Origin: a virus
DNA length: 25,161 bases
Virus record (IMG/VR): IMGVR_UViG_3300045950_000135
Span: 1-25,161 of that record
Reading direction: 5' to 3' (one strand)
Part shown: in pieces, positions 3,110 to 24,276 of the stretch
How positions within the stretch are numbered: the stretch's first letter is position 1
Layout: every line of letters begins with the position of its first letter
The notes under the pieces: model-generated
Databases searched by the model: none
Seen by the model: the letters and a program-made list of their open reading frames with translations, nothing else
Told to the model about the DNA's origin: nothing
Program-made: the position numbers and the translations under genes

Positions 3110-3439
3110 TTAACTCCATAGATCATTGAGCGTTTTTTTGACCGCGGCCAGGTGGACGTCCAGCGTGGGTAGAATAATCGCGTTCTTGCCGCCGTGAGCG
3201 ATTTCCAACCAGATACCGTACTCTACGCCGTGGCTAAGGAAGAGGACGACTTTGTTGTCGGCCGGCTGCTCAACACCGGCGTGCAGAGCCTGCCGGGCGT
3301 GACCGGTACGGTCCCGCCATTTGGCGCGTTGCTTGGCGTGGGACTCCATCGCACCAGCCCAGGTTTGCATCAGCATCACCGTGGCCGCTTTCTGCCGCTC
3401 AATGTGCTTCAGCGCTCCGTCTCCGAAGACCATCGGCAT
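3110..3439 (-). CDS. HK97 gp10-like / XkdI-like tail component
   Basis: About 110 residues. The pattern 'A...MLMQTWAGAMESHAKQRAKWRDRTGHARQALHAGV...VLFLSHGVEYGIWLEIAHGGKNAIILPTLD' is characteristic of the HK97 gp10/XkdI group: aromatic-rich, 'W.DRTG.AR..L', 'YG..LE..HGGK.AII.P'. Members act at the head-tail joint or tail completion step. The ATG at 3439 overlaps the upstream stop (TGATG); an alternative ATG at 3433 has a better spaced GGGTGA. It sits in a run of overlapping head-tail genes. Confidence 0.8.
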   Translation of the reverse strand: MPMVFGDGALKHIERQKAATVMLMQTWAGAMESHAKQRAKWRDRTGHARQALHAGVEQPADNKVVLFLSHGVEYGIWLEIAHGGKNAIILPTLDVHLAAVKKTLNDLWS

Positions 3440-3729
3440 CACCCGTCCCGCAGCAGATTGTTTTCCTTGAGGACCATGTAGAGCCCGACTGACAGCCGTT
3501 CAACTTGCTCTTCGTTGAGACCGACACCCATGAAAACGTCCGCCACGTGGACCATTTCGTGGAAGAAGACCTCCTCGGATCTCTCCGGCACCAGCCCGGC
3601 CTCAATTCTGATCACCAGGTTGGCATTATCGGCTTCACCAACGCGATCCCTGCGCTCATTGTTAACAAGAGCCGGACGCTCTACCCGGTAGGGGAACGGC
3701 CCCACCTTGAGGGTCTCCGGAATCTTCAT
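3439..3729 (-). CDS. HExxH mini-metalloprotease-like protein, late copy
   Basis: A 96-residue protein with a zinc-protease signature HEMVH at residues 57-61, preceded by the hydrophobic strand 'SEEVFF'. The N-terminus 'MKIPETLKVG' and C-terminus 'GLNEEQVERLSVGLYMVLKENNLL' closely match the early-region protein at 23961-24254, so the two are paralogues. Acidic residues in 'NEEQ' could supply a third zinc ligand. The ATG overlaps the upstream stop (TGATG) and has a GGGTGA ribosome site. It is embedded between closure and tail completion genes, so it is expressed with the structural genes. Substrate is unknown. Family resemblance is to small ImmA/IrrE- or SprT-type domains; proteolysis is not proven. 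Confidence 0.75.
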   Translation of the reverse strand: MKIPETLKVGPFPYRVERPALVNNERRDRVGEADNANLVIRIEAGLVPERSEEVFFHEMVHVADVFMGVGLNEEQVERLSVGLYMVLKENNLLRDG

Positions 3730-4109
3730 CAACTCACCCTTTCCAGGTCGGCCTGGTAGCCGACCACAACGCCGCCGACCACCTGCGGGTAAACGGCCCG
3801 GATCACGAATGCGCCAAGCCCCGGGGTCTCGAATTTGTCCGTCACGTTGGGGCCGACCTTGAGGTCTGCTGCGTGATCCGCCAGAAGGCCGTATACTGTG
3901 TCTGTCTGCATCTTGCCGGCTACGCCTGAAACATCCTGCTGACCGGAACCCTGGGTGAATATGCGTACCGTCAGTGGGCCGACACTGGAGACCTGCTCCG
4001 CAAAACCGCCGCCGGACCGGATTTTCTCAGCGCGGATGATGGTGATAATCACCGGGTTCTGCGCGATTGACCATTGTATGTGTCGTTTCCGTGCTGCTGC
4101 CAGATCCAT
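3729..4109 (-). CDS. Putative head closure / head-tail joining protein (XkdH-like position)
   Basis: A 126-residue protein. The content 'ARKRHIQWSIAQNPVIITIIRAEKI...GPLTVRIFTQG' with a C-terminal 'YPQVVGGVVVGYQADLERVS' suits a small beta-rich head closure protein of the YqbH/XkdH type. Position after the connector gene and before the gp10-like gene supports this. The ATG overlaps the upstream stop (TGATG) and has a GGAGGTGC ribosome site. Assignment depends mainly on gene order. Confidence 0.6.
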   Translation of the reverse strand: MDLAAARKRHIQWSIAQNPVIITIIRAEKIRSGGGFAEQVSSVGPLTVRIFTQGSGQQDVSGVAGKMQTDTVYGLLADHAADLKVGPNVTDKFETPGLGAFVIRAVYPQVVGGVVVGYQADLERVS

Positions 4110-6207: not shown

Positions 6208-7281
6208 TTAAATGGCGGCCCGCTTTACGCGCACGTTGGCGGAACCGCCTTTGTCGCCGGCGGCGCGCACGGCGCCGGCGACCATTGCCGGCGTGTCGGT
6301 GTGCAGCCGGCTCAGTGTTTCCTTTACCGACGCTTCGGCCAGCAGCGCGTCGATCTCCCCGGCGATCTGCTCCTTGGTCTTGCCCGCCGGCTGCAGCATC
6401 TTCCGGATCAACGCCTGAGCCATCTCGCCGGCGACTTTTTCCTTAAGCACACCATCGACCAACTCCTGGTGACTGCGCTCCCGGTCTTTGTCCATAGCCG
6501 CCTTAGCCTCCTTGGCCGCCTGTACGACGCCCATCTCGCCGGTCACGCCCAGGGCTTCGGCCACGGCCTGCAGCGCTTTCTCCGCGCCGGCCTTGCGCTC
6601 CACCCACTTGCCGTCAATCGCCCCGGCCACCTGCTCCGGCGTCCAGCCCATCTCCCCGGCCACCTGGGCCAGGGTCACATCACCGCTCTGCAGCAAGCCC
6701 TTCAGTTGCTGCACCAACTCTTTCCAACCCATCGTTTTGCCTCCTTCAATCTCACCAGTGGCCACTATTCTGGTTTGCATCCCCGCCCGGTCCAGAGGCG
6801 TCCAGTCAATTGAAAGCGCCTCATAGTCAATAACCTCGGCCTCTCCGCCCGCCGTCCGCAGCTTGGGATAGCCGAAGATGGACACCTGCTTAACCCGTCC
6901 GGTGCGTATCCAGCGTTTGAGATCCACCGCCGCCTGGTCAACCACGCCCCGAAAATACGCTTTGCCGTTCTGCATCTTGGCTCCGACCCAATGGGTCACA
7001 ACAGCCGGGAACTGGGTGGGCACATCGTCGGCCTTCTGGTGCCCTAAAAACCCGTTCAGCGTCCGCTCCTGGACCCGCCGGACGATGGCTTCCAGCGCCG
7101 GCATCTTGTAGTTCCAACCTCGCTTGCTCTTGCCCGGGGCAATCTCGACCACGACCTCCAGGGGGTCCTGGTCGCCCGCTTTAAGCGCCGACAGATCCAC
7201 GCCCGGCGCCGCCGGCACATCCTCGGGCCGCATTTCGCCCGAAACAGCGGCCGGCAGCCATGTCATTTCTCCCACAAGCAA
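6208..7281 (-). CDS. Prohead protease/scaffold protein (Mu I-like)
   Basis: About 357 residues. The N-terminal half contains 'GFLGHQKADDVPTQFPAVVTHWVGAKMQNGKAYFRGVV' and 'VKQVSIFGYPKL...EALSIDWTPLDRAGMQTRIV'. This is the layout of phage prohead proteases: a 'GH' histidine, a hydrophobic strand, a 'VSI.G' serine and a closing 'DW...RAGM..R'. The C-terminal half is helical and charged, rich in Lys/Glu/Ala (EQVAGAIDGKWVERKAGAEKALQAVAEAL, DKDRERSHQELVDGVLKEKVAGEMAQALIRKML), as expected for a scaffold. Start choice is uncertain. The TTG at 7281 has GGGAGGTG eight bases upstream, GTG 7275 and ATG 7266 are alternatives, and the open frame reaches 7326. Confidence 0.75.
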   Translation of the reverse strand: MLVGEMTWLPAAVSGEMRPEDVPAAPGVDLSALKAGDQDPLEVVVEIAPGKSKRGWNYKMPALEAIVRRVQERTLNGFLGHQKADDVPTQFPAVVTHWVGAKMQNGKAYFRGVVDQAAVDLKRWIRTGRVKQVSIFGYPKLRTAGGEAEVIDYEALSIDWTPLDRAGMQTRIVATGEIEGGKTMGWKELVQQLKGLLQSGDVTLAQVAGEMGWTPEQVAGAIDGKWVERKAGAEKALQAVAEALGVTGEMGVVQAAKEAKAAMDKDRERSHQELVDGVLKEKVAGEMAQALIRKMLQPAGKTKEQIAGEIDALLAEASVKETLSRLHTDTPAMVAGAVRAAGDKGGSANVRVKRAAI

Positions 7282-7304
7282 CAAATCACACCTCCCTTCG
7301 GGGC

Positions 7305-7333
7305 ATAATGAAAAACGTCCTAACACCGTTCAA
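7305..7333 (-). promoter_or_regulatory. Candidate sigma-70-type late promoter upstream of the protease gene (Mu PI position)
   Basis: On the minus strand TTGAAC (7333-7328) and CATTAT (7310-7305) are separated by exactly 17 bases, each matching the consensus at 4 of 6 positions. Transcription would begin near 7298, only about 17 bases before the TTG start, with the ribosome site in between. In Mu, late promoter PI sits immediately upstream of gene I, the homologous protease. The helically phased boxes lie directly upstream of this -35. This is prediction only. Confidence 0.45.
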
Positions 7334-7343: not shown

Positions 7344-7414
7344 ACGTTAACGGGGTCAGCCCCCGGCGTTAACATAGCGTTAATACCGCGTTACATGGGC
7401 GTTATTTTGCGTTA
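7344..7414. promoter_or_regulatory. Array of helically phased GCGTTA boxes
   Basis: On the plus strand GCGTTA starts at 7366, 7377, 7388, 7399 and 7409, giving steps of 11, 11, 11 and 10 bases. A variant ACGTTA at 7344 is 22 bases before the first. On the transcribed strand the box reads TAACGC. Regular one-turn phasing in a non-coding gap is a strong sign of cooperative protein binding along one face of DNA. The array spans about -46 to -116 from the predicted start of the protease promoter. The obvious candidates to bind it are the Mor-type activator or a repressor. Confidence 0.75.
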
Positions 7415-7463: not shown

Positions 7464-7484
7464 GCAGGGCCGTATAGGCCCTGC
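7464..7484. repeat. Perfect 8-bp hairpin downstream of the DUF4926-like gene
   Basis: GCAGGGCC (7464-7471) and GGCCCTGC (7477-7484) flank a five-base loop, GTATA. It lies 19 bases past the stop of the DUF4926-like gene in the direction of transcription. No T-run follows on either strand, so intrinsic termination is doubtful. A role as mRNA 3' end protection or as a boundary between the MuF module and the protease operon is possible. Confidence 0.6.
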
Positions 7485-7502: not shown

Positions 7503-7724
7503 TTATGGCTTACCGGCGGAGCCTATGCTGTGAACCAGCTCTAAATCGTCGGGACCGAACTCCTCCAGGACCAGGGTTTCTCCTTCCTGGTTGCTGAATT
7601 CCACTGTGTAGGCTTCATCCGGATGCCGAAACGCCATTACCACCGTTCCGGTGTCACCGCTTTTCAGTCCGTGCTCCGGAAAATCCCCGGTCAGTCTTAC
7701 CACATCAAGTTCCTCGAACTTCAT
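7503..7724 (-). CDS. DUF4926-like small protein, probable immunity partner of the MuF toxin-like domain
   Basis: A 73-residue protein: 'MKFEELDVVRLTGDFPEHGLKSGDTGTVVMAFRHPDEAYTVEFSNQEGETLVLEEFGPDDLELV'. The pattern 'D.V.LT.D.PEHGL..GD.GTVV....P..AY.VEF....G.T......DL.LV' matches DUF4926, a small SH3-like family that I know as a frequent neighbour of DUF6883 genes. Here it follows a MuF protein whose C-terminus looks like DUF6883, and the two genes overlap by four bases (ATGA), so they are translationally coupled. A protective role for the host or lysogen is inferred from that pairing. It is not a known Mu head gene, and Mu has no counterpart at this place. Confidence 0.8.
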   Translation of the reverse strand: MKFEELDVVRLTGDFPEHGLKSGDTGTVVMAFRHPDEAYTVEFSNQEGETLVLEEFGPDDLELVHSIGSAGKP

Positions 7725-9139
7725 TTCTTCACCTTCTTGGGAACGTAAGTGGTTACCAGCTGGGGGAAGTCCTTATTTTCCCGAAAGATCCACGCCGTAA
7801 CCACTTTAGCCGTTTTACCGTTTGGCCCCGTCAATTCCATGATTACCTCGTATTTGTCGCCATGTTTGCCTTTACCCTTGTAGACTGCGTCGTAATAGGG
7901 GAGGTTGCCCAGGATATCCCTCTCTAAGCGCCCCGCTGTGTTCAGGTTATATCCAAGGACTCTCTCGAAAACTATCGCCTTGTTTTTCCCCCTGGGGTGC
8001 TCCTTGTCCAGGGAATACTTCAACAGCTTCGGCGGGGCAATATAGGCCCGTTCCAGCCCCGGCAGCGGCTTTTCGGCCCATGGCCTCTCTCTGATTATAC
8101 CACCCGGCGGCCCGGCGCTAAACCCTTTGTAGACATCATTATACCAACGCTCCAGTTCGGGCTGGGCAGCCGGGTTCTGTGCCCATTCCTTGATCTTTTC
8201 GACCATTTCATCCGGCTGCGCGTGCACCGGCACCAGAAAGCTCATGGTGTTCGGGTGCGCCGGGTAAACCGGCTCGTTGCCCGGAGCGTACACTCCCGGC
8301 CCGAGGCCGTCCTCATCGGCCGCCGCCAGTACGTCGCAGATGTCATAGATCCGATGCTGTGCCGAAAGGCAATACTTGATCCCGACGTAGGAGGGAGTGA
8401 GCCGTGCGGCGGCGATACTGGCCTGACCGAAAGCCGCCGTGGCCTCGGTGCGCGCCAGGCGCAGCGCCTCATAGCTAATATCCTTCGGCACCCGGCCCTT
8501 GAGGCGCTCCCACGCCTCGGGATAATCCCGCAGGAGCGTCCCGGCGCCGGCTTTGACGTATCGCTCCAACATCCGGGCGGTCTTCACGGCGTCCTGGCCG
8601 ATGGCCACCGATTCCTGCACAAGCCTGGTTAGTTGGGTGCCATAGTTCGCCCCGGCGCGCCAGATTCGATCCGACACCTTTAGTCCCTTGAGGGTACGCT
8701 GCCACGCGGCTTCCACCGCCCGGGCGTTGACCCGGGCGAACATGCTGTTAATGCCGCTTGCGGTCACCAGGGTGCTGCCCGCATCTTGGAAGAGAGTGGT
8801 CGTCACTCCTTTGGAGTAGGTCGTCCCGGCTAAGACCGCGCCGTGAATCTGCCGGCGCAGCGCCGCGTCCAGATCGTCGGTGAGTTGCCCGACTTCCAAG
8901 CGCAGCATTCTTTCCAGTTCCTCAAGCTGTTGTTTCCTGATGTAGCTTGAAGGGGCTTTAAGGGCCAGTTTCCGTATTTCGTCGGCGATGTGGTCGGCGG
9001 ACCGCGCGTAGACCTGCCTGATCTCCAGATCCTGTTTCAGGCGCAGCTCGATAAACTCCCGCCGGGCCTGCAGGAAACGTCGCTTATACTCCTCGTTTCG
9101 GGTGGCGGCCGCGATCTGGTCGATCTCCCGCGGGCTCAT
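7721..9139 (-). CDS. MuF-type head morphogenesis protein fused to a DUF6883-like C-terminal domain
   Basis: A 472-residue minor head protein. Residues 1-140 are helical. Residues about 140-305 form the MuF/SPP1 gp7 domain: 'ISYEALRLARTEATAAFGQASIAAA' is its central helix, followed by 'KYCLSAQHRIYDICDVLAAADEDGLGPGVYAPGNEPVYPAHPNTMSF', with the typical C..H...DICD and 'P.HPN...F' residues. After a linker, residues about 367-466 ('LLKYSLDKEHPRGKNKAIVFERVLGYNLNTAGRLERDIL', then 'YEVIMELTGPNGKTAKVVTAWIF', 'DFPQLVTTY') look like DUF6883, a domain seen as a stand-alone or toxin-end module. The start overlaps the portal stop (ATGA). Carrying a toxin-like tail makes this a candidate member of the MuF polymorphic toxins of temperate phages. 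No active site is proposed. Confidence 0.85.
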   Translation of the reverse strand: MSPREIDQIAAATRNEEYKRRFLQARREFIELRLKQDLEIRQVYARSADHIADEIRKLALKAPSSYIRKQQLEELERMLRLEVGQLTDDLDAALRRQIHGAVLAGTTYSKGVTTTLFQDAGSTLVTASGINSMFARVNARAVEAAWQRTLKGLKVSDRIWRAGANYGTQLTRLVQESVAIGQDAVKTARMLERYVKAGAGTLLRDYPEAWERLKGRVPKDISYEALRLARTEATAAFGQASIAAARLTPSYVGIKYCLSAQHRIYDICDVLAAADEDGLGPGVYAPGNEPVYPAHPNTMSFLVPVHAQPDEMVEKIKEWAQNPAAQPELERWYNDVYKGFSAGPPGGIIRERPWAEKPLPGLERAYIAPPKLLKYSLDKEHPRGKNKAIVFERVLGYNLNTAGRLERDILGNLPYYDAVYKGKGKHGDKYEVIMELTGPNGKTAKVVTAWIFRENKDFPQLVTTYVPKKVKK

Positions 9140-10638
9140 TGCTTACCGCCAAGCTCTTTGTCGATCTCCGACTTTTCATCCAGTAGGCCTTCTGCGTCCT
9201 CCAACCGGGCTCTTTCGATTCGGTTCCTGATGATCCGTTCTCTTTCTCCCGGTTCATCACCCGCTTCAGACTCATAACTGCGCATGGTGTCCACGTATCG
9301 GCTGAGGAATTCGGCGGCCGCGTCATCGGAGAGGAACCCGCCCTGCACAGCGCGGTCCAGGGCGCTGGCGACCTTCTCCAGGATCTCGGCCACCTCTTTT
9401 TCGTCGCGCGGGTCCACTTCGTCCCAGTCCAGTTCCGTGGCATAGGTTGAGTACGCTTTGCCCTCGGACTTGGCCGTCATCGCCAATACGATCCGGGCCA
9501 CGAGCTGCCAAGGGTCCGCAAACTGATCGCGCTTGCGGATCACCTTGCGCACCACGACCGGCATTTGCTCTTTGACGGATGACATAGAGCTGGGGGTATG
9601 CACACCAAAAACGAATTCCGGTGTCTCGCTGGTATCCACGATGCAGTAAAAAATCAGCTTCAGCAGGGCGATGGTATCCCCAGTGGCGCTTTGCGCTTCC
9701 AGGAAGCCCGCATCTTCTTCGGACGAGAAGATGAGCAGTTCATGGCCGGACAGATTGATGGTGCCGCCCTTTTTCGCGAACTCCGCCGGCTCGGTGATGT
9801 TGAAATTGTTGCGCAGAAACGCGGCTACGTCTTTCAACTTCAGTTTCAGCCGAGGAGTGGAGTGCATCTTGGAGCCTTGGGCGGCGTGCAGCATCACATC
9901 ATGATACAGCTTCAGAAAAGGTTCGACGGGCTCCAGCTCCGACCGCCCGAACACTGCTGTTTCGTCGCCCTCGTTCCGGAAATGGACGATGGGGATGAAG
10001 CCCCAAATGTTTTCTTCCGTTCCCGGCCGCACTCCGGGGACCTGGCCGCCGTCGATCTCAATGGTCCTGGTCTCGCGGGTAATCCGCTGAGTGACGGTCG
10101 CCTGTCTCTTGCTGCCGTGCTCGTCCGTCCATTTGTGCCGGGACTTTAGCACATATTCGTAAACATCGCCGGTGACCGGGTTTTGTTTGATCTCGTCGAC
10201 CTGCTCAGGCGGGATGATGTGGTACACCAGCTTGGTATTTAGCTCCGGGTAAAACTCCTTGTCAGTCTCCTCCCGCGTGATCCAGACAAAGCAGTCTCCA
10301 TCACGCAGCGCGTTGCGGTGCGTTCTCTGCACGCGGGACCGGTTGGCGCCAAAAAATTCATCCAGCACCTTCTGGGCGTTTTCGTCTTCCGAGAGGAAGC
10401 GGGGCACACCCATAAATGCGACCAGCGTGTTGATGATGCCGCGCGCGAACCCGGCCCCCAGCTTGTATTCGTCCCGGTTGTTTTCGTACAGCTGACGGGC
10501 CAACTCGTAGTCCACCCGGCTGGAGTCCAGCTGGTAGACCGCATAGCCGCCGGTGGTCACCCCGAAGGGCAGGTACCCGCGCAGCCGGCTCATTTCGCCG
10601 ATAGCCCGCTTGACCCGTCGTATCCAACTTCCGTGCAC
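9136..10638 (-). CDS. Portal protein (Mu gp29 position)
   Basis: A 500-residue portal protein that should form the DNA gate of the capsid. The visible order is an N-terminal region 'YELARQLYENNRDEYKLGAGFARGIINTLVAFMGVPRF', then 'RDGDCFVWITRE' and 'YHIIPPEQVDEI...TGDVYEYVLK'. Next comes the stem/clip region 'IPIVHFRNEGDETAVFGRSELEPVEPFLKLYHDVMLHAAQGSKMHSTPRLKL', and an acidic helical C-terminus. These are general portal hallmarks, and the gene lies between terminase and MuF as expected. It starts at GTG, 16 bases after the terminase gene. An out-of-frame ATG overlaps the start. Confidence 0.9.
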   Translation of the reverse strand: MHGSWIRRVKRAIGEMSRLRGYLPFGVTTGGYAVYQLDSSRVDYELARQLYENNRDEYKLGAGFARGIINTLVAFMGVPRFLSEDENAQKVLDEFFGANRSRVQRTHRNALRDGDCFVWITREETDKEFYPELNTKLVYHIIPPEQVDEIKQNPVTGDVYEYVLKSRHKWTDEHGSKRQATVTQRITRETRTIEIDGGQVPGVRPGTEENIWGFIPIVHFRNEGDETAVFGRSELEPVEPFLKLYHDVMLHAAQGSKMHSTPRLKLKLKDVAAFLRNNFNITEPAEFAKKGGTINLSGHELLIFSSEEDAGFLEAQSATGDTIALLKLIFYCIVDTSETPEFVFGVHTPSSMSSVKEQMPVVVRKVIRKRDQFADPWQLVARIVLAMTAKSEGKAYSTYATELDWDEVDPRDEKEVAEILEKVASALDRAVQGGFLSDDAAAEFLSRYVDTMRSYESEAGDEPGERERIIRNRIERARLEDAEGLLDEKSEIDKELGGKQ

Positions 10639-10653
10639 ATTATCACCGCCATT

Positions 10654-12219
10654 TTACCCGTAGATCCTGGCCCGGCGGAAGATCCCCATCAGCCCCGAAT
10701 CCAGGGTGGATACGTTCTTGCACAGGCTGCGGCAGCCCTCCAGGGCGTCCGGCCCGTCGTCGTAATCGGCCATGGGGAAATACTTGAGCTGTTCCAGCAG
10801 TCGGCGGTGCCTGGGGTTGAACTTGATGTACTTGTTCTTGATATCCGGCTGCAGGGTCTGGATGCGCAGAACCTTGTCCCTGGACTGATAGACCTCTTCA
10901 ATGGGCAGGTACAGCTTCTCCCGGGCGCTGGCCTTAGCTAGCTCTTCCTTTAGAAACCACTGAAACTGGTTCGACTCGGAGCCGAACTTAGCATAACCCC
11001 GGCCGTAATCCCGGCGCAGCCAGCGCTCTTTCTCCAGGATGTCGGCAATGATCCGGTCCGGGTGCCGCCGCTCAATATCGGCGTCCAAGACGTACATGTA
11101 GCCAGTCTGCGTGTCCAAGGCGACGGTAATGATCGCGGAAAAGTCCGATTTCTTGCTCTTGCCCAGAGACGGGTCCACAAAGCCGAAGAAGAGAAAGCCT
11201 TTGCCGAACTGCATCCCCACAGGGTTGAAGTAGTCAAACCACCCATCATCAAACAGGCAGTCCTCGGGGTTGATCGGCTCGTTCTGCAGTTCCGAGTTGA
11301 AGCTGGCCTCGCCCTCGGAAACCCGGGTCGCCATCAGGTCGTAATAACTGTTTTTCTCTTCCCAGAGCACTCTGGCGCCTTCCAACATGGCTTCACGATG
11401 CTCTTCAAAAAACCGGTGCGCATTCTCCTCACGGTCTTCGTCAAACAGGTCGGTGTAGATCTCCTCCCACTGATCCCACAGCCCCTGGTTCTTGGCGAAG
11501 CTCAGTACCGCCTGGTATTTCCTGGTCCGGTAGGCTGGGTTTTTGAGCACTTTGGCCAGCAGGCTGTCGTAGTGCAGGAGGGTGCCGATGTAGATGATGT
11601 CCGTGTAGTCGTCGCCCGCTTTGGACACGGCCTTGTAGAACCAGTTCTCCAGCTTTTTGCGCTGCTCCGGCGTCCGGACGTTCTCGTCATTTTCAATGTC
11701 GTCCAGGATGATCAAGTCCGGCCGCCAGTTCTTGTGCTTCCGGCCGCGGACCTTCTTGCCGGCGCCCAGGGCCTCGATCTTGATGCCGGTACTGGTCAGC
11801 AGCACGTTACCCTTCCAGACCTTGCCTTCAAGTCGCCCAAAGTCCTCGATAGCGCGCTCGTTTTCTTCCAGCTCTTCGCGTATGCTGGCCAGGAAGCCCT
11901 CGGCCTGTTCGCTGCTGTCCGAGATAATGAGGATATAGTGCTTGTAGCCATAGAGGATGGCGTGCAGCGTATTCTTGAACGTGAGCGTGGTGCTCTTGGC
12001 GTGCCCGCGCGGGGCGCCGACGGCTCGCCGGGTACCCGTTTCCGTGTCGATGACGCCTTCGAGCCAGATCTGATCCAGCTCCCGGTGAAATTCCGGCGAC
12101 GGGCGAGAGAAGTAGTGGGGGAAATAAGCTTTGCCGAAGTAGTCCAGGTCCCGCTGCCCGCGGCGTTTTCTGTTCGAGTCGCCGCTGCGGCCTTGGACCA
12201 GGTCCTCAAGGATGCTCAT
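10654..12219 (-). CDS. Terminase large subunit (Mu gp28 equivalent)
   Basis: A 521-residue packaging motor. The Walker A-like motif APRGHAKST is at residues 69-77. The Walker B motif LIILDD is at 169-174 with E176 close by. The nuclease domain shows D349 (FGFVDPSLG), D359 (KSDFSAIITV) and the C-terminal 'DYDDGPDALEG' (485-495). ATPase and nuclease halves are both complete. It starts at ATG a few bases after the small membrane protein gene and precedes the portal gene. Mu-like phages package by headful with this enzyme. Confidence 0.95.
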   Translation of the reverse strand: MSILEDLVQGRSGDSNRKRRGQRDLDYFGKAYFPHYFSRPSPEFHRELDQIWLEGVIDTETGTRRAVGAPRGHAKSTTLTFKNTLHAILYGYKHYILIISDSSEQAEGFLASIREELEENERAIEDFGRLEGKVWKGNVLLTSTGIKIEALGAGKKVRGRKHKNWRPDLIILDDIENDENVRTPEQRKKLENWFYKAVSKAGDDYTDIIYIGTLLHYDSLLAKVLKNPAYRTRKYQAVLSFAKNQGLWDQWEEIYTDLFDEDREENAHRFFEEHREAMLEGARVLWEEKNSYYDLMATRVSEGEASFNSELQNEPINPEDCLFDDGWFDYFNPVGMQFGKGFLFFGFVDPSLGKSKKSDFSAIITVALDTQTGYMYVLDADIERRHPDRIIADILEKERWLRRDYGRGYAKFGSESNQFQWFLKEELAKASAREKLYLPIEEVYQSRDKVLRIQTLQPDIKNKYIKFNPRHRRLLEQLKYFPMADYDDGPDALEGCRSLCKNVSTLDSGLMGIFRRARIYG

Positions 12220-13445: not shown

Positions 13446-13943
13446 TTACTCGGACTTTTGCAACACGTTTACGCTCAACTCAATGATCTTGGGCTCGCCA
13501 AACAGCGGGATATTGACCTTCGCCCGGCCCTTGCGGCGATCCAGCTTAACGATTTGCCCCTCTAAACCCCGGAGCGGCCCCGACACTATCTTGACCCCAT
13601 CCTGTTCGTACAGAGCAGTCGATACACCGATCAGTTCATCGTCCCGCACCAGGCCGAGTACCCGGTTCATCTCTGTCGGCTGTACCGGCTGCGGTCTGCC
13701 GGCGCCCAAGATCCGGATTACGCCGCGAATTCCAGTGAGCGTGTAGTAGTCATTCGGCTCCAATGCTGTGTTTACGAACACATAGCCCGGGAAAAGACAC
13801 CTGATGACCTGCCCTGTCACGCCGCGCCGCCGCTCCGTCATCTGCCGGCGGGGGACCAGGGCGTGCATCCCCGCGTCCCGCACGCGGCGGCCGACCTCAA
13901 CCTCCCGCGCAGTCTTGGTATGCAGGACATACCACTCAGCCAT
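13446..13943 (-). CDS. NusG-family transcription elongation/antitermination factor (LoaP/RfaH-like paralogue)
   Basis: A 165-residue protein. Residues 1-80 are the NGN domain: 'MAEWYVLHTKTAREVEVGRRVRDAGMHALVPRR', then 'GQVIRCLFPGYVFVNTAL' and 'YYTLTGIRGVIRILG'. Residues about 110-160 carry a KOW domain ('DGVKIVSGPLRGLEGQIVKLDRRKGRAKVNIPLFGEPKIIELSVNVLQ'). Length and a complete NGN-KOW layout equal a small NusG. Such proteins bind RNA polymerase and prevent pausing or termination. It overlaps the gp27-like gene by eight bases (ATGGCTGA), so it belongs to the phage operon and is not a host gene. Mu itself has no such factor at this place. Specialised control of the late operon is inferred. Confidence 0.88.
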   Translation of the reverse strand: MAEWYVLHTKTAREVEVGRRVRDAGMHALVPRRQMTERRRGVTGQVIRCLFPGYVFVNTALEPNDYYTLTGIRGVIRILGAGRPQPVQPTEMNRVLGLVRDDELIGVSTALYEQDGVKIVSGPLRGLEGQIVKLDRRKGRAKVNIPLFGEPKIIELSVNVLQKSE

Positions 13944-14514
13944 CCCTATCCTCCAAGCGGGAAACGATCTTGTCATCCAACAAGCAGCAGATCTTCTCAT
14001 GCAGATCAGGGTTGCGCTTCAGCTCCTTGGCCAGCTCATCCTTGACCTCCTGGACGGCTTGTTTAATCAGCCGGCCCTGCTCCGCCCGGAACTTCTCCTT
14101 GTGGACGATACTCCTCTGCAGGTAGACCAGGAGCCGCCCCACCTTGTCCAGGGGCATCCGGTCCCACTCATCCTCAGCAGTAGCCAGGCGCTCGGTCAGG
14201 GCATTGATCAAGATCGTCTCTGCGGCGTCCGAGGCCTCGATGTTCTGATTCTCCTTAACAGTCTGGACCAGGAGCCGGGTCTTCTCATATGCTTCCTTCA
14301 GCCGCCGGGCGGCCGCGGACTTGTTCAGCGCATACCGTCCGACACTGGATTTTGAGATCCGAAAGGCTCCTTGCCCCCGTGATGTAATTTCGGCCGCGAT
14401 CTGCTCGTAGGTATAGTTCACGTTGGCCAGCATCTCATCCAGCCGCGCACGGACATCTTCCGGGAGTTCGTCCACCCGGCTCTTGATTCGATGTCTCTCG
14501 CGTTCCTTGCCCAT
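13936..14514 (-). CDS. Mu gp27-like protein (DUF3486), putative small terminase subunit
   Basis: A 192-residue helical protein. 'MGKERERHRIKSRVDELPEDVRARLDEMLANVNYTYEQIAAEITSRGQGAFRISKSSVGRYA' is the characteristic DUF3486 N-terminus: a basic start, 'S.vd.LP..vr..ld..L....yty..I...i...G....iSkSsvgRY'. The remainder is coiled helices. Mu gp27 lies just before the large terminase gp28; here the NusG and lysis genes have been inserted between them. It should bind DNA and recruit the large subunit. The start ATG is directly after the preceding gene. Confidence 0.88.
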   Translation of the reverse strand: MGKERERHRIKSRVDELPEDVRARLDEMLANVNYTYEQIAAEITSRGQGAFRISKSSVGRYALNKSAAARRLKEAYEKTRLLVQTVKENQNIEASDAAETILINALTERLATAEDEWDRMPLDKVGRLLVYLQRSIVHKEKFRAEQGRLIKQAVQEVKDELAKELKRNPDLHEKICCLLDDKIVSRLEDRDG

Positions 14515-23960: not shown

Positions 23961-24254
23961 TTAGTCTTCTAGCCCGAAGTGCAATTTGTTGATTTTAATT
24001 GCTGCGTAGAGGCTTTCAGCCAGTCGGGCCACAGCGTCCTCATCCAACCCGATTGCGCATTGTTGGTCGATCTCGTGCAGTATCTCGTGAAGCAGTGATT
24101 GTTCCTGGCGGCTGTGACTCATAGCACCATCAATTCGTATCTTGTTTTCCAAATGATCTATCTCTGCCCGCCTCGGAACATGTTTGTTGACAATCTCCAC
24201 TATAGACACCTGAAATGAATGGCCGCCAATTCTTACATGTTGAGGAATTTTCAT
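23961..24254 (-). CDS. HExxH mini-metalloprotease-like protein, early copy
   Basis: A 97-residue protein from the ATG at 24254, which has GGGGGA six bases upstream; the frame opens at 24275. HEILH is at residues 56-60 after 'QSLL'. The start 'MKIPQHVRIG' and end 'GLDEDAVARLAESLYAAIKINKLHFG' align with the late copy at 3439-3729. Proteins of this type are short ImmA/IrrE- or SprT-like domains. Since it sits beside the transposase and near regulators, cleavage of a repressor is a reasonable guess, but no such substrate is visible. It is divergent from the YjzC-like gene. Confidence 0.75.
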   Translation of the reverse strand: MKIPQHVRIGGHSFQVSIVEIVNKHVPRRAEIDHLENKIRIDGAMSHSRQEQSLLHEILHEIDQQCAIGLDEDAVARLAESLYAAIKINKLHFGLED

Positions 24255-24276
24255 CCGCATTCCCCCGAAAAACATG

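What the first reader, a model, noticed from the sequence alone, without database searches (positions are those of the whole stretch)
7503..9139. MuF head protein with a toxin-like DUF6883 tail and coupled DUF4926 partner: a possible phage-borne toxin/immunity pair
Seen: a full MuF domain is followed by about 100 extra residues (about 367-466) resembling DUF6883, and the next gene, overlapping by ATGA, resembles DUF4926. Known: DUF6883 and DUF4926 genes often sit side by side in bacteria, and MuF proteins of temperate phages can carry polymorphic toxin domains at the C-terminus, packaged in the virion. Inference: the domain is delivered with phage DNA or acts against competitors, and DUF4926 protects the lysogen. 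I do not know a described activity for DUF6883 in this setting.
Basis: partly seen in the sequence, partly recalled or inferred. Interest (0 to 1): 0.88.

Follow-up and report, generated by a model that had tools for sequence, protein, structure and literature searches.

The report
Phage head toxin with immunity partner
A virus of bacteria carries, on the end of a protein of its head, a small domain that looks like an RNA-cutting toxin, together with the gene of a small protein that probably neutralises it; the same pair turns up in many other bacterial weapons, so two protein families of unknown function gain a testable role.

Summary
Window:7721-9139(-) is a MuF-type minor head protein (PHROG 1657, E 1.8e-92) ending in DUF6883 (residues 359-467, E 9e-25); the next gene, overlapping by ATGA, is DUF4926 (E 1.4e-19). 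BalMu-1 and phiCD27, with the same head gene order, have a short MuF and no DUF4926 gene. DUF6883 ends phage-head proteins (MuF1, MuF2, portal) and FHA/CdiA-like, Rhs, Hcp and PrsW proteins, the mark of a polymorphic-toxin domain. In 62 of 66 surveyed DUF6883 loci a DUF4926-like ORF follows directly; none was found in 79 MuF loci without DUF6883, near-copies and fragments included. The predicted DUF6883 structure (pLDDT 90) best matches the BECR-fold tRNase CdiA-CT Kp342 (Z 11.0, 2.3 A over 101 residues) and keeps a candidate Lys/Tyr/His/Thr active site. DUF4926, modelled on a homologue, is an SH3/KOW-like barrel. Best reading: a MuF polymorphic toxin, probably a tRNase, with its immunity protein. 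Toxicity, RNA cleavage, packaging and protection are inferred. New, undescribed member of a known kind.

The parts
8117..9106 (-). MuF-type minor head / head morphogenesis domain (residues 12-341 of the 472-aa protein)
   Evidence: PHROG 1657 E 1.8e-92; 45 and 39% identical to the short MuF proteins of BalMu-1 and phiCD27; hhalign to PF04233-bearing MuF 97.8%
7739..8065 (-). DUF6883 domain (residues 359-467), predicted BECR-fold RNase toxin
   Evidence: PF21814 E 9.2e-25; model pLDDT 90, pTM 0.82; 6cp9 CdiA-CT Kp342 Z 11.0
8027..8029 (-). K371 (domain K13), invariant in 51 of 51 aligned domains, proposed active-site lysine; Y375 lies at 8015-8017 and H381 at 7997-7999
   Evidence: conservation; equivalence to Kp342 K157/Y160/H170 inferred from the ends of the structural alignment and PMC9086364
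7751..7753 (-). T463 (domain T105), Thr/Ser in 48 of 51, proposed active-site residue on the last strand
   Evidence: equivalence to Kp342 T255 inferred
7721..9139 (-). whole muf-DUF6883 gene (472 aa)
7503..7724 (-). DUF4926 gene (73 aa), predicted immunity protein, pI 4.3; SH3/KOW-like barrel by homology
   Evidence: PF16277 E 1.4e-19; fold from the homologous pair L025; charge
7721..7724 (-). ATGA overlap: stop of muf-DUF6883 and start of DUF4926 (translational coupling inferred)
   Evidence: kept in L002
9136..10638 (-). portal protein gene directly upstream (its 3' end overlaps the muf start): head-module context
   Evidence: PF05133 E 1.4e-11, phrog_64 E 5.2e-46
6208..7326 (-). next head gene downstream (phrog_3219); in BalMu-1 and phiCD27 a large hypothetical gene follows the short MuF with no DUF4926 gene between
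   Evidence: phrog_3219 E 1.5e-127

Best explanation
This is a MuF polymorphic toxin of a temperate, Mu-like (transposable) myophage. The MuF part places a few copies of the protein in the head next to the portal. Its C-terminal DUF6883 domain is a metal-independent RNase of the BECR fold, most likely a tRNase like CdiA-CT Kp342/EC3006, with a Lys-Tyr-His-Thr active site. It would enter the next cell with the DNA and slow or stop translation there, tipping the infection towards lysogeny or inhibiting competitors. DUF4926, co-translated through the ATGA overlap, is an acidic SH3/KOW-like barrel that caps the active site and protects the virion-producing cell (and a lysogen, if it is expressed there). 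Shown here: the architecture, the pairing, the shared-carrier pattern, and the predicted folds with conserved candidate residues. Inferred: RNase/tRNase activity, toxicity, capping by DUF4926, packaging and injection, and the biological payoff.
For: Domains. Same-synteny relatives without the domain lack the partner: BalMu-1 and phiCD27; 0 of 79 fetched MuF loci without DUF6883 have a DUF4926 hit. Pairing: 18 of 24 viral, 36 of 37 genome and 5 of 5 plasmid loci at E <= 1e-3; 21, 36 and 5 at E <= 0.01; all 76 DUF4926 hits in the 164 loci scanned are adjacent to DUF6883. Shared pool of carriers: MuF1, MuF2 and portal heads, FHA/CdiA-like, Rhs, Hcp, PrsW, and stand-alone pairs. The same MuF slot carries other extensions in relatives, including the BECR toxin Ntox50 in L135. 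Fold: AF2 pLDDT 90; 6cp9 Foldseek E 7.4e-4; VIA Z 11.0, 2.3 A over 101 of 109; 6vek Z 8.8; 6cp8 Z 8.3; a second model, of a homologous domain with an overlapping alignment, gives 6cp9 Z 11.5. K13 and Y17 in 51 of 51, H23 in 48 of 51, T/S105 in 48 of 51, in line with the published Kp342/EC3006 set K, Y, H, T. Toxin and partner in one chain: pLDDT 96.2, pTM 0.79. Window toxin pI 9.8, partner pI 4.3; 23 of the 24 DUF4926 proteins measured are acidic. Temperate lifestyle: Mu-type transposase and transposition protein. Weak support: the cassette has lower GC (52.0 and 54.8%) than the MuF part (62.9%), but other small genes of the window are as low.
Against: No activity is shown. The fifth Kp342 active-site residue, R252, would fall on Q in the window and on R in 29 of 51 domains; H23 is missing in 3 of 51. 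The residue equivalences come from the ends of a structural alignment, not from a residue-by-residue superposition. No sequence match to any solved structure at a meaningful E-value. BECR proteins also include non-RNases (ParE). Only 37 of 51 DUF6883 domains are basic (pI > 7.5). In cyanobacteria 54 of 150 listed DUF4926 genes have no DUF6883 hit upstream, and 33 of 130 DUF6883 hits have no listed DUF4926 downstream; in 4 of 14 orphans inspected a ParE/RelE-like or HicAB gene lies close by, so DUF4926 is not exclusive to DUF6883. Four of 66 surveyed DUF6883 loci (L020, L022, L047, L071) have a downstream small ORF that the profile does not recognise, and three more (L024, L026, L079) match only weakly. 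An RNase that cuts host tRNA on entry could harm the phage's own replication, a cost that Iyer et al. raise for phage BECR domains. The one-chain model has no inter-domain error estimate and a short tether.
Confidence: 0.72

Rival explanations
1. DUF6883-DUF4926 is an intracellular toxin-antitoxin module that happens to be fused to a head gene; it acts in the producing cell (addiction or abortive infection) and is not delivered by virions.
For: Stand-alone DUF6883-DUF4926 gene pairs are common in cyanobacteria (97 of 130 hits paired) and occur on plasmids (L006, L007), with no delivery domain.
Against: Of 17 viral carriers scanned with profiles (of 24 found) 15 are MuF-type minor head proteins, one is a portal and one a polyvalent protein. 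The same domain ends FHA/CdiA-like, Rhs and Hcp proteins, which are exported (established knowledge). A late head gene is a poor place for an addiction module (inference).
Confidence: 0.13
2. DUF6883 is a BECR-fold domain that no longer acts as a toxin in this phage: it binds RNA or DNA, or helps head assembly or ejection, as proposed for the inactive C-terminal domain of Mu gpF.
For: BECR domains at MuF C-termini can be inactive, as argued for Mu gpF (PMC5512222); the window protein has Q where most relatives have R.
Against: K, Y, H and T are kept in the window protein and nearly everywhere. A paired DUF4926 gene is kept, and was not found where the domain is absent. Short MuF relatives with the same head gene order lack the domain, so it is not needed for the head.
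Confidence: 0.1
3. The domain is an RNase toxin but its target is not tRNA: it cuts mRNA on the ribosome (RelE/BrnT-like) or phage/CRISPR RNA, and serves counter-defence or host shut-off during infection.
For: A Salmonella toxin-antitoxin toxin (7vd7, Z 7.6), BrnT (Z 6.8) and RelE proteins (Z 5.0-5.9) follow the two CdiA toxins in the structural ranking. Iyer et al. suggest mRNA or CRISPR RNA targets for phage BECR domains, since phages need tRNA.
Against: The closest match by a clear margin is the tRNase Kp342 (Z 11.0 and 11.5), followed by EC3006 (Z 8.8). The K-x3-Y pair and the late Thr/Ser fit the Kp342/EC3006/colicin D set.
Confidence: 0.2

Closest known systems
MuF polymorphic toxins (Jamet et al. 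2017, PMC5576092; Apk2, PMC12226406; Bxa, PMC11699363)
   Same: MuF domain next to the portal gene in a temperate phage, variable C-terminal toxin domain shared with other polymorphic toxins, small immunity-like ORF directly downstream
   Different: The toxin domain (DUF6883) and partner (DUF4926) are not those characterised for Apk2 (pppApp synthetase) or Bxa (ADP-ribosyltransferase); the term DUF6883 occurs in no paper of the library searched
CdiA-CT Kp342 and EC3006 (PDB 6CP9, 6CP8/6VEK), BECR-fold tRNases for tRNA-Ile(GAU)
   Same: Fold (Z 11.0 and 8.8; 2.3 and 3.3 A) and a conserved K, Y, H, T/S set at apparently matching places; the Kp342 immunity protein is also mostly beta-strands
   Different: About 16% identity and no detectable sequence match; on a phage head protein instead of CdiA; the partner is a small (49-111 aa, 73 aa here) SH3/KOW-like protein; substrate unknown; the Arg is Q in the window
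PBECR domains fused to MuF or portal (Iyer et al. 2017, PMC5512222)
   Same: A BECR RNase fold at the C-terminus of MuF and portal proteins, probably injected
   Different: No PBECR profile matches the window protein at E <= 0.01; in L162 PBECR3 and DUF6883 are two separate domains of one protein; a partner gene accompanies DUF6883
Ntox50 type BECR toxins (YxiD/YxxD, MafB2; PMC12700104)
   Same: BECR tRNase at the end of polymorphic toxins; YxxD immunity has an Sm-like fold with an acidic loop; an Ntox50 domain sits in the same MuF slot in L135
   Different: Different family; three-His active site; different immunity family

Membership tests
MuF polymorphic toxin | N-terminal MuF-type domain | tested here: met
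   PHROG 1657 E 1.8e-92; hhalign 97.8% to PF04233-bearing proteins; Pfam's own MuF models not reached at E 0.01
MuF polymorphic toxin | gene in the head/packaging module next to the portal | tested here: met
   portal gene 9136-10638 directly upstream, terminase 10654-12219
MuF polymorphic toxin | C-terminal domain shared with other polymorphic-toxin families | tested here: met
   FHA/CdiA-like (L034), Rhs (L038), Hcp (L041) and PrsW (L029) proteins with C-terminal DUF6883; 4 of 6 bacterial carriers scanned have a recognised N-terminal part
MuF polymorphic toxin | small ORF directly downstream, absent when the MuF lacks the toxin domain | tested here: met
   62 of 66 DUF6883 loci; 0 of 79 MuF loci without DUF6883 have a DUF4926 hit, near-copies and fragments included
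MuF polymorphic toxin | temperate phage | tested here: met
   Mu-type transposase (phrog_310, Mu-transpos_C) and transposition protein (phrog_296) in the window; lifestyle itself inferred from these
MuF polymorphic toxin | toxic activity, neutralised by the partner; presence in the virion | not testable with these tools
   needs expression, binding and proteomics
BECR-fold RNase (Kp342/EC3006 type) | BECR fold: N-terminal helices and a four-stranded antiparallel sheet | tested here: met
   model helices 11-18, 27-37, 41-57, strands 60-66, 69-79, 85-94, 101-107; 6cp9 Z 11.0
BECR-fold RNase (Kp342/EC3006 type) | active-site K, Y, H, R, T | tested here: inconclusive
   K, Y, H and T/S conserved (51, 51, 48 and 48 of 51); R in 29 of 51 and Q in the window; positions matched by alignment ends only
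BECR-fold RNase (Kp342/EC3006 type) | cleaves tRNA | not testable with these tools
   -
PBECR (Pfam PBECR families) | match to a PBECR profile | tested here: not met
   only PF21814 found in the window protein at E <= 0.01
Type II toxin-antitoxin system | small stand-alone toxin with a cognate antitoxin | tested here: inconclusive
   stand-alone pairs exist elsewhere but here the domain is fused to a head protein

The most novel reading that the evidence does not exclude
DUF6883-DUF4926 is one tRNase/immunity cassette that moves between phage heads (MuF1, MuF2, portal), type VI Hcp, CdiA-like, Rhs and PrsW carriers. In the phage a few virion-borne tRNase molecules per infection change its outcome (for example pausing translation to favour lysogeny, or blocking rivals) until the incoming genome supplies DUF4926. 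This would be a virion-injected tRNase with its own dedicated inhibitor; I know of none described, from recall and the paper searches only.
Probability: 0.3. Interest if true: 0.78.

Novelty: new member of a known kind. Interest (0 to 1): 0.56.

Why it matters
Two widespread Pfam families without a function (DUF6883, DUF4926) become a concrete, testable toxin/immunity hypothesis: a fold, four candidate catalytic residues and a partner. The pair links phage heads to contact-dependent, Rhs and type VI weapons through one shared cassette. It also offers sources from named strains (the genome of Extibacter muris DSM 28560, locus L049, whose gene is the one of virus record L014; and a phage region on an Anoxybacillus amylolyticus DSM 15939 plasmid, L003) to ask the open question of Jamet et al.: what MuF toxins do for phages, and whether they are injected.

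Tried and rejected
Rejected: chance resemblance (scores far above curated cut-offs; pair conserved). Rejected: a structural need of the head, because same-synteny phages do without the domain. Rejected: exclusive partnership of DUF4926 with DUF6883, because 54 of 150 listed cyanobacterial DUF4926 genes have no DUF6883 hit within 400 bp upstream (the DUF4926 list was cut at about E 1e-6, so 97 of 130 is a lower bound; some genes count as two hits). Of 14 of these 54 orphans that I fetched (among the highest-scoring), one keeps a C-terminal DUF6883 remnant (L176, E 1.3e-4), two have a ParE/RelE-like gene close upstream by profile (L168, L175), L167 has a close relative of the L168 gene (by eye), L171 has HicAB, and in the other nine I recognised no partner.

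Led nowhere: tblastn of the DUF6883 domain and of DUF4926 in 50,697 phage records gave no match at E 0.01, although IMG/VR and BFVD hold relatives; profile searches against solved structures gave nothing of note; PADLOC gave only weak, unspecific matches to the MuF part. The literature searches for DUF6883 (0 papers) and DUF4926 (1 paper, a passing mention) cover only the open-licence library. VIA lists other folds lower down; absence of a family from that list was not used.

Rows dropped: I gave the script 60 of the 80 MuF loci (left out: L114, a second copy on the contig of L113, and 19 near-copies of the phiCD27-type MuF, judged by identity and coordinates). Of the 60, 8 ran off the contig and 4 were identical to another, leaving 48: 19 with an extension of at least 100 aa (the window's near-copy L081 among them), 28 with 21 aa or fewer, and L100 with 81 aa. 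The six-frame scan used all 164 loci held then. The 66 surveyed DUF6883 loci include near-copies (L012/L013, L017/L018, L014/L049, L023/L057, L005/L025/L042). Of the 24 viral carriers 17 were scanned with family profiles. Five genome loci carry broken or partial toxin genes (L036, L053, L061, L062, L063) with the partner gene still recognisable; they were described as they are and not mended.
Full report
1. The observation. The minus-strand gene 7721-9139 encodes 472 residues. Residues 12-341 match PHROG 1657 (head morphogenesis, E 1.8e-92) and other minor head families. Residues 359-467 match DUF6883 (PF21814, 87.5 bits, cut-off 27), and the 73-aa gene 7503-7724 matches DUF4926 (PF16277, 69.7 bits, cut-off 29.1). 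Stop and start overlap as ATGA at 7721-7724. The window is a 25,161-base IMG/VR virus record with Mu-type transposase and transposition protein, Mu Gp27-like, terminase, portal, head decoration and tail sheath genes: a transposable, hence temperate, myophage. A second virus record, 96% identical over the MuF protein, keeps both genes and the overlap.

2. A natural contrast. The best MuF relatives in 50,697 annotated phage records are BalMu-1 (45% identical) and phiCD27 (41%). Both keep the order portal, MuF, large hypothetical gene, decoration, but their MuF ends at 333 and 335 aa and no DUF4926 gene follows. A wider IMG/VR scan gave 80 MuF loci (206 confirmed, the best 80 kept). Only the near-copy of the window (L081) carries DUF6883, and only it has a DUF4926 hit; the other 79, near-copies and fragments included, have none. 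Among 48 distinct complete genes that I compared, 28 are short, one (L100) has an 81-aa intein-like extension, and 19 have an extension of at least 100 aa in the same slot. Ten of the 18 other long extensions were scanned: one is Ntox50, a BECR toxin (L135, E 1.2e-10); three show sub-threshold similarity to a zincin peptidase family; six had no toxin match. Motifs read by eye suggest zinc peptidases (HExxH) and JAB-like domains; these labels are recalled, not tested. The slot is thus polymorphic, as Jamet et al. describe for MuF toxins (PMC5576092, parts 1-3 of 6 read).

3. The pair elsewhere. Searches with DUF6883 and DUF4926 alignments gave 24 virus records with DUF6883 and 37 genome contigs; 5 of 7 plasmid hits were opened. 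A DUF4926 profile, built from the paired genes and run over all six frames of 164 loci, hits 21 of 24, 36 of 37 and 5 of 5 of these loci (18, 36 and 5 at E <= 1e-3), always directly downstream; no hit lies anywhere else in the 164 loci. The four misses (L020, L022, L047, L071) have a small downstream ORF that the profile does not recognise. The profile was trained on neighbours of DUF6883, so its sensitivity is biased towards them; that it hits nothing else, and nothing in the 79 MuF loci, is the control. With Pfam's own model 8 of 10 divergent phage partners are DUF4926-like at E <= 0.01, three of them above the curated cut-off; two (L071, L078) give no match. In 194 cyanobacterial genomes 57 have DUF4926, and 51 of those 57 have DUF6883. 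There 97 of 130 DUF6883 hits are followed by a listed DUF4926 and 33 are not; 54 of 150 listed DUF4926 are orphans.

4. Carriers. Of 17 viral carriers scanned (of 24), 15 are MuF-type minor head proteins (PF04233, PF06152 or head PHROGs; L074 is a portal-MuF fusion), one is a portal protein (L019) and one a polyvalent protein with a PBECR3 domain (L162). An Anoxybacillus plasmid carries a PF04233 MuF-DUF6883 gene in a phage region; Pfam does not recognise its 56-aa partner, but my profile does (E 1.7e-9). Of six bacterial carriers scanned, four have a recognised N-terminal part: FHA/CdiA-like (L034), Rhs (L038), PrsW (L029), Hcp (L041); two (L043, L044) have none. A toxin domain found at the end of several unrelated delivery proteins is the hallmark of polymorphic toxins (PMC5576092; PMC3482391, passages). 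In a tree of 51 domains the 19 phage-head rows need 7 changes of carrier (6-8 in bootstraps), though well-supported branches alone force only one; the window groups with other phage-head domains without firm support. The cassette has lower GC (52.0 and 54.8%) than the MuF part of the same gene (62.9%) and the window (59.9%), a weak sign, since other small genes of the window are as low.

5. Fold and candidate mechanism. AlphaFold2 with a 51-sequence alignment models the domain at pLDDT 90, pTM 0.82: three helices, then a four-stranded sheet. Foldseek's only PDB matches with E <= 0.001 are two chains of 6cp9, CdiA-CT of Klebsiella pneumoniae 342. VIA-align gives 6cp9 Z 11.0 (2.3 A, 101 of 109), CdiA-CT EC3006 Z 8.8 and 8.3, then toxins of toxin-antitoxin systems (7vd7, BrnT, RelE) at Z 7.6 and below. 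A second model, of a homologous domain and with an overlapping alignment, gives 6cp9 Z 11.5. Kp342 and EC3006 are BECR tRNases for tRNA-Ile(GAU), with active sites K157, Y160, H170, R252, T255 and K204, Y208, H256, R260, T330 (PMC9086364, passages; PMC6851490, passages). In DUF6883, K13 and Y17 are invariant in 51 of 51, H23 occurs in 48 and T or S105 in 48. The structural alignment runs from model residue 7 / chain 151 to 109 / 259, which would set K13 on K157 and T105 on T255 if no gap lies near the ends: a strong hint, not a residue-level proof. R252 would fall on residue 102, R in 29 of 51 and Q in the window.

6. The partner. DUF4926, modelled in one chain with its toxin from L025, where the genes lie in one frame, is an SH3/KOW-like barrel (best row Z 9.7, NusG Z 9.1; many SH3-like folds are close to tied). 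The chain has pLDDT 96.2 and pTM 0.79, which suggests a defined packing of the two parts, but no inter-domain error is given and the tether is short. Of 24 DUF4926 proteins measured 23 are acidic; 37 of 51 toxin domains are basic; the window pair has pI 9.8 (toxin) and 4.3 (partner). Immunity proteins of BECR CdiA-CTs generally bind over the active site.

7. What remains inference. RNase or tRNase activity, toxicity, capping, packaging and injection were not testable. Delivery is plausible because MuF proteins are head components bound to the portal and a MuF toxin has been detected by proteomics of phage StB12 (reported in PMC5576092). The MuF toxins Apk2 and Bxa are toxic in bacteria and are neutralised by neighbouring proteins (PMC12226406, abstract and passages; PMC11699363, passages). 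The partner gene overlaps a late gene and a sigma-70 consensus scan shows no promoter-like site on its strand, so protection of the virion-producing cell is better founded than protection of a silent lysogen. A cost remains: a tRNase could hurt the phage itself; Iyer et al. make this point for phage BECR domains (PMC5512222, passages).

8. Known or new. The kind is known: MuF polymorphic toxins, and BECR domains on MuF and portal proteins (PBECR). The window's DUF6883 matches no Pfam PBECR model, and in L162 DUF6883 sits beside PBECR3 as a separate domain. No paper in the library names DUF6883, and DUF4926 appears once in passing. Verdict: a well-supported, apparently undescribed toxin/immunity pair; a new member of a known kind; interest 0.56.

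Noticed in passing
window 7366-7414 (and L008 about 4044-4090): Five GCGTTA motifs at 11, 11, 11 and 10 bp spacing lie between the DUF4926 gene and the next head gene (5 of the 8 in the window; the total is as chance gives, the clustering is not tested); BalMu-1 has a different repeat in the same gap. By recall this is about where Mu has its strong gyrase site, near the genome centre.
   Followed up: partly
window 7464-7484: A perfect 8-bp hairpin (GCAGGGCC, 5-nt loop, GGCCCTGC) just after the DUF4926 stop codon, without a T run.
   Followed up: no
window 13446-14000 (-): A NusG-family gene that passes the NCBIfam cut-off for the antiterminator LoaP (153 bits against 125), next to Mu Gp27-like 13936-14514; unexpected in a Mu-like phage.
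   Followed up: no
window 3439-3732 (-) and 23961-24275 (-): Two small proteins with an HExxH motif (HEMVH, HEILH) that resemble small zinc peptidases by eye; no Pfam match at E <= 0.01.
   Followed up: partly
L100 and L101: MuF genes of relatives appear interrupted by an intein/Hint-like sequence inside the MuF domain (read by eye).
   Followed up: no
L168, L175, L171 (and L167): Some orphan DUF4926 genes of cyanobacteria lie beside ParE/RelE-like or HicAB genes, so DUF4926-like barrels may also partner other toxins.
   Followed up: partly
L036, L053, L061, L062, L063: Genome loci in which the DUF6883 gene is broken or shortened while the DUF4926 gene is still recognisable, as expected if the partner protects.
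   Followed up: partly
L019 and L074: DUF6883 also sits at the C-terminus of portal proteins (L019 without a MuF match, L074 as portal-MuF-DUF6883).
   Followed up: yes
window residues about 295-302 of the MuF protein: The HPNCxC / HPHCLC motif of the short relatives' MuF domain reads HPNTMSFL in the window protein.
   Followed up: no
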